A stretch of 64,000 nucleotides of DNA, taken from the NCBI GenBank assembly GCA_035645145.1, contig DASQNC010000047.1:1-64000 (forward strand). The letters are read 5' to 3'. Each line of letters starts with the position of its first letter. Position 1 is the stretch's first letter. Under the pieces are notes generated by a model. The model made no database searches. It was not told the origin of the DNA and saw only the letters and a list, made by a program, of their open reading frames with translations. This stretch comes from Azospirillaceae bacterium. GTDB taxonomy: Bacteria; Pseudomonadota; Alphaproteobacteria; Azospirillales; Azospirillaceae. The translations under genes and the position numbers were made by a program. Below, in pieces: positions 40,891 to 45,740 of this stretch.

Positions 40891-40912
40891 AACAGCGGCC
40901 GTGCCGCTTGTT
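40891..40912. terminator. Hairpin between convergent genes
   Basis: AACAGCGGC/GCCGCTTGTT with a 3-base loop and one bulge lies between the MFS gene and the hybrid kinase gene, overlapping the stop of the latter. It is probably a bidirectional terminator. Confidence 0.5.
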
Positions 40913-43133
40913 ACGCCACCTTGACCGCGGACCGTGCCTCCTCGGCGGCACCGCTCAGCATTTCCACCACCTTGCGACCGAGTTCCTTGGGGGTGAAGGG
41001 TTTGGGCAACAGCTCGAACGGTTCGTCCGGCCGCATGTCGGACAACTGCTCGCGGCTGTAGCCGGACACCAGCAGGACCTTCAGGTTCGGCATCAGCCGA
41101 ATGGCTTGGCGTGCCAAATCCAATCCACTGACGCCGCGCGGCATCACCACATCGGTCACCACCGCATCGAAGCCGCGGTCGCGCGAGAGCACGTCCAGCG
41201 CATCCACCCCATCCGCCGCGCCGACCACCTGGAATCCCATCTCGACCAGGCTTTGTTCGGTCACCAGGCGCACCAGCGCATTGTCCTCCACGACCAGCAC
41301 GCGTCCGCGGATCCGGTCCTCAGCGGGTTGCGCCGGCTTCACGGCCTCCACGCAGGCCGAACAGGTGGGCATGGGACTGGCGAACGAGCGCGGCAGCAGC
41401 AATCTCACCGTGGTGCCATGGCCCGGGCGGCTGGCCAGTTCGGCGGTGCCTCCGCTCTGCCGGGCAAAGGCGTAGACGGTGCTCAGACCCAGCCCGGTTC
41501 CCTGCCCCACCTCCTTGGTGGTGAAGAAGGGGTCGAACGCCTGCGCCGCGACTTCGGGCGTCATGCCGATGCCGGTATCGATCACTTCGACGACAAGGGT
41601 GGGGATCGGTTGCCGCGTCCGCCGCGTGGCCTCGGCGGATGCCATGCCGTCGGCCTCCATTGCGGCAATACGCGTGCGGAAACGCACCTTGCCACCCGAC
41701 GGCATGGCGTCGCGCGCGTTCGCGGCGAGGTTCAGAAGGGTCGCCTCGAACTGCGCGGGGTCGATCTCGGCAACGCACCTCTCCTCGGTCAGGTCGAATT
41801 CGAGCGCGATGTCCGCGCGCAATGTGCGCTCGATCAACGGCGTCAGGCACCGGATCGATGCATTCACGTCGATGACCTCGCGGTGTGCGGCCTCGCGGCG
41901 GGAAAAGGCCAGAAGTTGGCGGGTGACGCTGGCGGCGATCTCCGTCGCCTGAATCGCCGAATCGAGCTTCGGGCGCCCGGTCGGCGGGACGTCGGCAAGC
42001 AGAAGACGCAGGTTGCCGCCGATTGCGGTCAACATGTTGTTGATGTCGTGGGCCACGCCGCCCGTCAATTGGCCCAGGGCCTCCATCTTCTGGATGTGGA
42101 TCGCCGCGGCTTCCGACGCCTCGCGCCGGGCGATCTCCGCTTGCAGCCGTTCCGCCGTCTCCGCGAGCGCAGCCCTGGCCCCCGCCTCGGCCCGGGCCCG
42201 GCACATGGCCAGCAGCGTCATGGCGATCAGCAGGCCCACGCCCAATGCGGTGAGACCGGCCACCGCCCCCCATGTCCGCCGCCAGATCGCCAACGCCGGT
42301 CCCAGCGGAACCTCGTAGACGATGGACAGCGGCAGTCCACCGACCCGCATGTGTGCAGAGATGCGGTCGAGCCCGTCGGCGGAGCGCGCGCGGAAAGCCC
42401 CTTCCGGGGCAGCGGCAATCGCCTGCATGAGCGGCGAAGTCGCAGGGCTCAGGCGCAACGGCCCCTCGGCCGGCAGCGCCGGCATCCGCACGATCGCCAC
42501 CCCGTCGTCCCGGAGCAGCGTGACAAGCCCGTCCGGTCCGGGATCGACCGATGCCCATACACTCCGGAAGTAATCCGGCGACAGCTCGGCGACGAGCACG
42601 CCGTCGGCCCCCTGGATCCGCCCGGTCCGGGGCCGGCTGATGTGGAACAGGTTCCGGCCGGTGATGCGGTCGGGAACGATCGGACTGACGTGATACCGGA
42701 AGCCACCGCTTCGATGGGCCGTCACGAACTCACGGTCCGCATAGGACAGGCCCGGTTCCAGCGGCGTGCTCAGCGTCAGAAGGGCGGGCCGTCCGTCCGG
42801 ATCGACCGCGACAAGGGTGCGCGTCGGCTCCAACCATGCCACCAGCGGGTCGAGTTCCACGGACAGGGCGGCCCTGTTGAGCCGGATCGCGTCCCAGCCC
42901 ATGTCGGACATGCGCTCGTTCAGCTGGTCCAGGACCAGCATGTTGCTCTCGAACACCTTGGAGGCGTGCTCGGCCAGAAGGGCCGCATGCTGGCTGGCGG
43001 TTCCCATCAGCCCGGCGATCGTCCGGTCGTAGTCGCGCCAGGCGAGCGCACCGATCAGCATCGCCGGAAACAGAACCACCCCGGCCAAAAGCGCCTCCAG
43101 GGCCGAGAAGCCGGCCCCACGGCGCCATCCCAT
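40911..43133 (-). CDS. Membrane hybrid histidine kinase with periplasmic sensor and receiver domain
   Basis: A 740-aa two-component sensor. A transmembrane helix near 12-33 and a second near 300-325 enclose a PDC/Cache-like periplasmic domain of about 260 residues. A short coiled coil leads to the HisKA domain with the phospho-acceptor in GGVAHDINNML. The ATPase domain has N box LNLAANARDAMP, G1 DTGIGM and G2 GQGTGLGLST. A C-terminal receiver (LVVEDN, Asp in VTDVVMP, Lys in LPKPF) follows. The HDxNN type usually passes phosphate within the protein. I chose Met 43133, with GAGGG upstream. An earlier ATG at 43223 would add 30 residues. The stimulus is unknown. Confidence 0.92.
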   Translation of the reverse strand: MGWRRGAGFSALEALLAGVVLFPAMLIGALAWRDYDRTIAGLMGTASQHAALLAEHASKVFESNMLVLDQLNERMSDMGWDAIRLNRAALSVELDPLVAWLEPTRTLVAVDPDGRPALLTLSTPLEPGLSYADREFVTAHRSGGFRYHVSPIVPDRITGRNLFHISRPRTGRIQGADGVLVAELSPDYFRSVWASVDPGPDGLVTLLRDDGVAIVRMPALPAEGPLRLSPATSPLMQAIAAAPEGAFRARSADGLDRISAHMRVGGLPLSIVYEVPLGPALAIWRRTWGAVAGLTALGVGLLIAMTLLAMCRARAEAGARAALAETAERLQAEIARREASEAAAIHIQKMEALGQLTGGVAHDINNMLTAIGGNLRLLLADVPPTGRPKLDSAIQATEIAASVTRQLLAFSRREAAHREVIDVNASIRCLTPLIERTLRADIALEFDLTEERCVAEIDPAQFEATLLNLAANARDAMPSGGKVRFRTRIAAMEADGMASAEATRRTRQPIPTLVVEVIDTGIGMTPEVAAQAFDPFFTTKEVGQGTGLGLSTVYAFARQSGGTAELASRPGHGTTVRLLLPRSFASPMPTCSACVEAVKPAQPAEDRIRGRVLVVEDNALVRLVTEQSLVEMGFQVVGAADGVDALDVLSRDRGFDAVVTDVVMPRGVSGLDLARQAIRLMPNLKVLLVSGYSREQLSDMRPDEPFELLPKPFTPKELGRKVVEMLSGAAEEARSAVKVA

Positions 43134-43287
43134 GATGGCCCTCAACACCACAAAACCTCCCTGGGAGGTACCGACAGCCCGAAAGAAAGATGATTTCGAG
43201 CGCCGATGGGCAAGCCGAAACATGGGGGATGGCCAATGTGGTTAATCACCTACGCCGAAGGCGGCAGGCGCCTGCGGGGCTTATCCC

Positions 43288-44780: not shown

Positions 44781-45017
44781 ATGAGCGCCCTGTCCGAACC
44801 CTGGCGCCGGTGGCGTGATCCCGAGCGCGGCCCCGCTTCGGAGCACCCGTTCGACCACCGGCAGGTGGAAATCATGCGCAGCGGCTGGCACCGGCCGCTG
44901 GTCGTCAACCCTCGTGAAATCCACCCGGCGACGGACGGAACCGGCTTGTTGTGGCGCCCCGTCGGGCACACGACCGCGCGGTCCGGGCCCGAACCGGTCG
45001 GCATCTCCAACGACTGA
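44781..45017 (+). CDS. Small hypothetical protein, 78 aa
   Basis: I do not recognise this protein. It is rich in Arg, Trp and Pro (SALSEPWRRWRDPERG, RSGWHRPLVVNPREIHPATD) and has no signal or membrane segment. Third codon positions are mostly G or C, like real genes nearby, and this is the main argument that it is coding. No strong ribosome binding site is seen. It ends about 50 bases before the kinase-like gene on the same strand and may be cotranscribed with it. Confidence 0.45.
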   Translation: MSALSEPWRRWRDPERGPASEHPFDHRQVEIMRSGWHRPLVVNPREIHPATDGTGLLWRPVGHTTARSGPEPVGISND

Positions 45018-45065
45018 GCGGCCAATCGCGCCGGAATCCCGGTGCGCGGCCTAATGGAGGATCGA

Positions 45066-45740
45066 TTGTCTCTCATCAGCCCTCGGGACGGTGCGTGCAA
45101 CGGCGTCGCGGAGTTCGCTCGGTCGCGGGAGAGTGCGGAGAGCCTGCTGCACGATCTGAACCAGCGGGTTGAGAACTGCCTCACCATCGTCTCGACCCTG
45201 ATGGGGCAGCAAGCGAGGGACACCGTCGATCCGACCGCCCGCCAAGCCATCTCGACGGCGCAGGGCCGGTTGCAGGCGTTGGCGCGCTGCCACAAGGCAT
45301 TGCTGCGCCAGCCCCGCCCGGACCGGCTGCATGTGTCGGCGGTGATCCGGGACGTGGCCGCCTCGCTCGCAGTCTCCTGGGAGGCGCTGGATCGGGGGAT
45401 CGACGTGTCGATCGGCACGGATTCGGCATGGATGCCCCCGGATACGGCCATCCCGCTGGTGCTCATCACCAACGAACTGGTCAGCAACGCACTCCGTTAC
45501 GCCTTCCGTGGGCGGACCTCGGGATTGGTCAAGGTGGAGCTGCGCGTCCAGGGACCGGGCCTGGTCCTGGCCGTCCGCGACGACGGCATCGGCATTTCCG
45601 ACAAGACGCTCCGCAGCGCCGGCGCGGGGCTGAAGCTGATCCACGAGATGGCACACCAGATCGGGGCGACGGTGCTGTTCCACCGCGAAGCCGGGACGAC
45701 GGCGCTGGTCTCGGTCCCGTTGCGGAACGCCGCGGGCTAA
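45066..45740 (+). CDS. Histidine-kinase-like protein (HisKA_2/HWE type) without the phospho-acceptor histidine
   Basis: A 224-aa soluble protein with a HisKA_2-type dimerisation helix pair (about 20-95) and a C-terminal HATPase domain. The ATPase boxes are intact: NELVSNALRYAF (N box), DDGIGI (G1) and GAGLKLIHEMAHQIGA (G2). In the helix where the family has H-R-V-K-N, this protein reads Q33-R-V-E-N, so the usual phospho-accepting His is a Gln. It has no sensor domain. The start is judged to be the TTG at 45066, with GGAGG five bases before it. An ATG at 45054 lacks such a site. It may be a pseudokinase or regulator of another two-component protein. Confidence 0.8.
   Translation: MSLISPRDGACNGVAEFARSRESAESLLHDLNQRVENCLTIVSTLMGQQARDTVDPTARQAISTAQGRLQALARCHKALLRQPRPDRLHVSAVIRDVAASLAVSWEALDRGIDVSIGTDSAWMPPDTAIPLVLITNELVSNALRYAFRGRTSGLVKVELRVQGPGLVLAVRDDGIGISDKTLRSAGAGLKLIHEMAHQIGATVLFHREAGTTALVSVPLRNAAG

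What the first reader, a model, noticed from the sequence alone, without database searches (positions are those of the whole stretch)
45066..45740. HisKA_2-type kinase with intact ATP site but Gln in place of the phospho-accepting His
The motif that should read H-R-V-K-N reads Q-R-V-E-N at residues 33-37, while all three ATP-binding boxes are preserved. This pattern suggests a pseudokinase that binds ATP and acts as an allosteric partner, or an enzyme phosphorylating elsewhere (His29 is three residues away). It sits with a small Arg/Trp-rich ORF of unknown function.
Basis: partly seen in the sequence, partly recalled or inferred. Interest (0 to 1): 0.6.

Follow-up and report, generated by a model that had tools for sequence, protein, structure and literature searches.

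The report
Histidine-less kinase keeps ATP site
A small soluble bacterial signalling protein has the body and ATP pocket of a histidine kinase but has lost the histidine it should phosphorylate, and its closest relatives show the same part of the protein wearing away, so it probably now works by binding partners rather than by passing on phosphate.

Summary
Window 45066(TTG)/45054(ATG)-45740 (+) encodes a 224-228 aa sensor-less HisKA_2 transmitter whose phospho-accepting His is Gln (H-R-V-K-N reads Q-R-V-E-N). The N, G1 and G2 boxes are intact. "His29" is four residues away, not three. Other HisKA_2 proteins of these genomes keep H, R and N in 80 of 80 cases. The Gln itself is not conserved: in an Azospirillaceae clade of eight homologues the site is Gln here, Glu in the only other genome of the genus, and His in six. 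What is clade-wide is decay of the H-box (HRxxN broken in seven of eight) with the ATP-binding domain kept in all eight. Between the two same-genus genes the CA domain is under purifying selection (dN/dS about 0.4) while the DHp domain looks unconstrained (about 1.1, near saturation). So it is not a dying gene, and it is very unlikely to autophosphorylate at the usual place. Best reading: a pseudo-histidine kinase, an ATP-binding partner or regulator of another kinase or response regulator, by analogy with DivL. No partner is identified; the allosteric step is inference. H-less HWE/HisKA2 kinases are already reported, so this is a new variant of a known kind.

The parts
45066..45740 (+). CDS of the HisKA_2-type pseudo-histidine kinase, 224 aa from TTG (228 aa from the ATG at 45054), no sensor domain
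45056..45060 (+). Shine-Dalgarno-like GGAGG, 5 bases before the TTG start
45150..45152 (+). codon of the upstream His (His29 in TTG numbering, His33 in ATG numbering), four residues before the Gln
45162..45176 (+). degenerate H-box motif Q-R-V-E-N in place of H-R-V-K-N; CAG (Gln) at 45162-45164
45267..45269 (+). R-box Arg72, conserved in all eight clade members
45471..45506 (+). N box, NELVSNALRYAF (E141, N145)
45579..45611 (+). G1 box and lid, DDGIGISDKTL; I181, S182, T185, L186 are signature residues of this clade
45621..45632 (+). G2 box, GAGL (G192)
44781..45017 (+). small Arg/Trp-rich ORF (78 aa) just upstream, no convincing homologue; may or may not be a gene and its link to the kinase is unproven

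Best explanation
It is a soluble, sensor-less HisKA_2 (HWE/HisKA2) transmitter that has become a pseudo-histidine kinase. Shown by sequence: the acceptor His is replaced by Gln, every ATP-binding motif is kept, the gene is intact, and within its clade the H-box erodes while the CA domain is conserved. Inferred: it still binds ATP, cannot autophosphorylate at the canonical site, and acts through protein contacts, with its nucleotide state setting the shape of the DHp/CA module that binds another HisKA_2 kinase or a response regulator, in the manner of DivL. I put loss of canonical autophosphorylation at about 0.93 and the partner/allosteric mode of action at about 0.5.
For: HisKA_2 + HATPase_c domains; Gln aligned to the EL346 phospho-His; AlphaFold model (pLDDT 84.6, pTM 0.78) has the DHp hairpin (helices 14-56, 60-85) and a full CA fold, closest to EL346 (VIA Z 21.9, 179 residues, rmsd 3.3). 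H-R-N kept in 80/80 other HisKA_2 loci but broken in 7/8 of the clade, while E141, N145, D176, G178, G180, G192 and R72 are kept in 8/8. H-box identity is lower than CA identity in 20 of 21 clade pairs against 15% of 590 comparator pairs. Window versus same-genus homologue: DHp dN/dS 1.29/1.13, CA 0.39/1.03. The same-genus homologue has Glu at the site. Precedents: DivL (PMC4211667) and a subgroup of EL346-like LOV-HKs without the acceptor His (PMC10359499).
Against: No partner, response regulator or conserved neighbourhood is identified. In the window the rest of the H-box (R, N, and D at -3) is retained, so it could still contact a response regulator or act as a phosphatase. The dN/dS values are near saturation and rest on 55 and 130 codons of one pair. 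ATP binding is inferred from motifs only. There is one genome of this species, so a strain-specific state cannot be excluded.
Confidence: 0.55

Rival explanations
1. Dedicated phosphatase: with His replaced by Gln but R(+1) and N(+4) kept, the protein dephosphorylates a response regulator and cannot phosphorylate it, with the CA domain and nucleotide as cofactor.
For: The window protein keeps R and N of the H-box. From general knowledge, the residue at +4 in HisKA kinases is a phosphatase determinant and His-to-other mutants of several kinases keep phosphatase activity.
Against: N(+4) is lost in six of eight clade members and the DHp looks unconstrained between the two genus members, which a phosphatase surface should not be. 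Whether +4 has that role in HisKA_2 was not tested, and no response regulator is known.
Confidence: 0.13
2. Kinase in trans: its ATP-binding domain phosphorylates the His of a partner HisKA_2 kinase in a heterodimer, so only the partner needs the acceptor.
For: CA domain fully conserved and under purifying selection; the genome has at least a dozen other HisKA_2 matches, most read with intact H-boxes. RT-HK, an HWE/HisKA2 kinase, autophosphorylates in trans (PMC12148442).
Against: Unconstrained DHp argues against a conserved dimer interface; its closest structural relative EL346 is monomeric (PMC12148442).
Confidence: 0.15
3. Alternative acceptor: the protein autophosphorylates on another residue, such as the His one helical turn upstream, or a Ser/Thr.
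For: A His sits at -4, roughly on the same helix face. Ser residues occur at +4/+6 in several clade members.
Against: His at -4 is absent from all other clade members and also occurs in a canonical kinase that has the normal His.
Confidence: 0.06
4. Recent loss of function: a redundant orphan kinase on the way to becoming a pseudogene.
For: Patchy distribution (8 of 82 family genomes); DHp unconstrained between the two genus members; no conserved neighbourhood.
Against: Intact frame, strong codon bias, Shine-Dalgarno site, every ATP-site residue kept and CA dN/dS about 0.4.
Confidence: 0.11

Closest known systems
HisKA_2 / HWE (HisKA2) histidine kinases, e.g. EL346 of Erythrobacter litoralis (4R39, 4R3A)
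   Same: Domain match, profile alignment over the whole transmitter, best fold match, Glu in place of the first N-box Asn, R-box Arg.
   Different: No phospho-accepting His, Lys-to-Glu at +3, no sensor domain.
H-less subgroup of EL346-like LOV-HKs (PMC10359499)
   Same: HWE/HisKA2 kinases reported to lack the conserved phosphoacceptor His.
   Different: Those carry LOV sensor domains; this one has none and belongs to a clade found here only in Azospirillaceae. The identity of their replacing residue was not available to me.
DivL (Caulobacter)
   Same: Alphaproteobacterial transmitter with a non-His residue (Tyr) at the acceptor site, working as a sensor of DivK~P without kinase activity (PMC4211667); appears among the fold matches.
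   Different: Has PAS domains, and its Tyr is conserved across nearly all homologues; here the residue is not conserved and there is no sensor domain.
PhyK / LovK (Caulobacter)
   Same: HisKA_2 proteins with conserved CA that do not autophosphorylate (PMC5964349).
   Different: They keep the His and act as phosphotransferases; this protein has lost the His. The NCBIfam PhyK hit is generic: ordinary HisKA_2 paralogues score higher.

Membership tests
HisKA_2 (PF07568) sequence family | Score above the curated cut-off | tested here: met
   44.4 bits against 22.3; 46.3 bits in the genome search.
Functional HWE/HisKA2 histidine kinase | Phospho-accepting His in the H-box | tested here: not met
   Gln at the position that is His in 80/80 other loci.
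Functional HWE/HisKA2 histidine kinase | N, G1 and G2 boxes of the CA domain | tested here: met
   E141, N145, D176, G178, G180, G192 present.
Functional HWE/HisKA2 histidine kinase | R-box Arg and N-box Glu | tested here: met
   R72 and E141 conserved in 8/8; features as listed in PMC12148442.
Functional HWE/HisKA2 histidine kinase | Autophosphorylation with ATP | not testable with these tools
   Needs a protein assay.
DivL-type pseudo-histidine kinase | Non-His residue at the acceptor site of an otherwise complete transmitter | tested here: met
DivL-type pseudo-histidine kinase | Replacing residue conserved across orthologues | tested here: not met
   Gln here, Glu in the same-genus homologue, His in six others.
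DivL-type pseudo-histidine kinase | Phospho-specific binding of a response regulator | not testable with these tools
   No candidate response regulator next to the gene; needs binding assays.
PhyK (NF051872) | Score above the equivalog cut-off | tested here: not met
   92.7 bits against 750; other HisKA_2 paralogues score higher.

The most novel reading that the evidence does not exclude
An Azospirillaceae clade in which a histidine-kinase transmitter is being converted, caught in the act, into a free-standing ATP-binding regulator: N(+4), R(+1) and in places the His itself are lost while the ATP site and a clade-specific lid (GIS-KTL) are held by selection, giving a nucleotide-dependent switch with no phosphorelay role.
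Probability: 0.25. Interest if true: 0.6.

Novelty: new variant of a known kind. Interest (0 to 1): 0.36.

Why it matters
It gives a natural series, from a canonical H-box (HRAKN) through HRARS, HRALS, HRLHS and HHAALG to QRVEN and no His at all, in one small protein without sensor domains. That makes the question of what a histidine-kinase ATP domain does once phosphotransfer is lost directly testable by assaying a handful of 230-residue soluble proteins.

Tried and rejected
Is the Gln conserved? No. Is it a PhyK relative? No, the PhyK score is generic. Is the match to HATPase_c_2 (anti-sigma kinases) special? No, canonical HisKA_2 proteins score much the same. Is there a conserved operon or response regulator? 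No: G001 and G003 have the gene in a polysaccharide cluster (FkbM methyltransferase, epimerase, flippase), G027 and G032 between a radical-SAM gene and an FAH-type gene, G013 near glycosyltransferase and flagellar genes, the window between an amine-oxidase-like gene and an M48 peptidase (gene names in these neighbourhoods are mostly my reading of the translations). The window genome's own copy of that flippase has no kinase beside it. Is the small ORF a conserved partner? No. No RNA family, promoter or terminator signal was found near the gene. Clade members outside the family: none among 385 class-level genomes at the threshold used, but only the top 7 candidates per genome were scored. Families absent from the NCBIfam and VIA lists are not excluded by that absence.

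Full report
What is there. The plus-strand ORF ending at 45740 is intact. The protein is a bare transmitter: HisKA_2 (44.4 bits, cut-off 22.3) followed by HATPase_c (39.9 bits, cut-off 26.4), with no sensor domain. The H-box reads LLHDLNQRVENCL. Aligned through a profile to EL346, the Gln falls on the His of its QHRVKN motif. The nearest His is four residues upstream, not three.

How unusual it is. In 53 comparator HisKA_2 sequences the H, R(+1) and N(+4) are invariant. A second set of 80 other HisKA_2 loci, most of them from the eight genomes that carry this clade, also gave H, R and N in 80 of 80 (the sets overlap). Some of those 80 have weak CA boxes with an intact H-box, the opposite direction of loss. 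In the window genome itself the other complete HisKA_2 matches that I read carry HRxKN-type motifs.

The clade. Searches of 82 genomes of the same family, which includes Oleisolibacter albus of the Azospirillaceae, give one such protein each in eight genomes: the window genome, G001 (same genus), G003, G009, G013, G027, G032 and G087. They group together in a tree from the CA domain alone (support 0.84) and from the whole transmitter (0.97), with window and G001 as sisters (0.99). At the acceptor site they have Gln (window), Glu (G001) and His (six). The full triad H-R-N survives only in G087; N(+4) is Ser, Gly or Met in six. By contrast R72, E141, N145, G157, D176, G178, G180, G192 and G214 are present in all eight, and the seven core members share invariant residues R148, R154, I181, S182, T185 and L186, mostly around the ATP lid, that are uncommon in comparators. 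H-box identity is lower than CA identity in 20 of 21 pairs of the seven core members, against 15% of 590 comparator pairs in the same range of CA identity. The class-wide search found no member elsewhere, but it scored only seven candidates per genome.

Selection. Between the window gene and its same-genus homologue, dN/dS is 0.39/1.03 in the CA domain but 1.29/1.13 in the DHp domain. Between G027 and G032, which keep the His, both domains are under purifying selection (0.26/0.55 and 0.22/0.61). Synonymous sites are near saturation in most of these comparisons, so the figures are rough, but the contrast between domains is large. The gene is therefore not simply decaying: the ATP-binding half is being kept.

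Structure. The AlphaFold model (pLDDT 84.6, pTM 0.78) has a DHp helical hairpin (14-56, 60-85) and a full CA fold. Its best match in the PDB is EL346 (Foldseek E 2.7e-13; VIA Z 21.9 over 179 residues), with DivL among the further matches.

Context. No neighbourhood is shared by the clade. In G001 and G003 the gene lies in a polysaccharide cluster beside an FkbM methyltransferase and a flippase, and in G001 its stop codon overlaps the start of an epimerase gene. In the window it lies between an amine-oxidase-like gene (minus strand) and an M48 peptidase; the nearest two-component gene is a hybrid kinase at 40911-43223. The small Arg/Trp-rich ORF upstream has coding-like GC3 but no homologue better than E 0.002 in 82 genomes.

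How it probably works. Shown: no acceptor His, intact ATP motifs, intact gene, clade-wide H-box erosion. Inferred: ATP binding, absence of autophosphorylation, and action by contact with another kinase or response regulator. DivL is the model for such a role: Tyr at the acceptor site, no kinase or phosphatase activity, specific binding of DivK~P (PMC4211667). Rivals are a phosphatase-only protein, a kinase acting in trans on a partner's His, an alternative acceptor, and early decay; the evidence for each is set out in its entry.

Novelty. HWE/HisKA2 kinases without the acceptor His have been reported among EL346-like LOV-HKs (PMC10359499), and pseudo-histidine kinases are known (DivL; ChrS variant, PMC9491836). 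New here is a sensor-less clade with a graded series of H-box loss and a selected ATP domain. I rate it a new variant of a known kind and of moderate interest.

Noticed in passing
window 40911-43223 (-): CckA/VirA-like hybrid histidine kinase (dCache-like sensor, HisKA with normal His, HATPase_c, receiver), the nearest two-component gene to the pseudo-kinase.
   Followed up: partly
loci L155-L234, CA signatures EADGPA and EQDGGA: Some other HisKA_2 paralogues in these genomes keep the H-R-N triad but have degenerate ATP boxes, the opposite loss, as expected for phosphotransferase-type proteins such as PhyP.
   Followed up: no
L071 3000-3800; L075 6520-9881: In G001 and G003 the clade member sits in a polysaccharide gene cluster; in G001 its stop overlaps the start of an NAD-dependent epimerase gene (ATGA).
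   Followed up: partly
window 44781-45017 (+): 78-aa Arg/Trp-rich ORF with coding-like GC3, no convincing homologue in 82 family genomes.
   Followed up: yes
L083 (G009), L078 (G032), L079 (G027), L080 (G013): Clade members that keep His have Ser instead of Asn at +4 (HRLHS, HRARS, HRALS), a residue that may bear on phosphatase activity.
   Followed up: no
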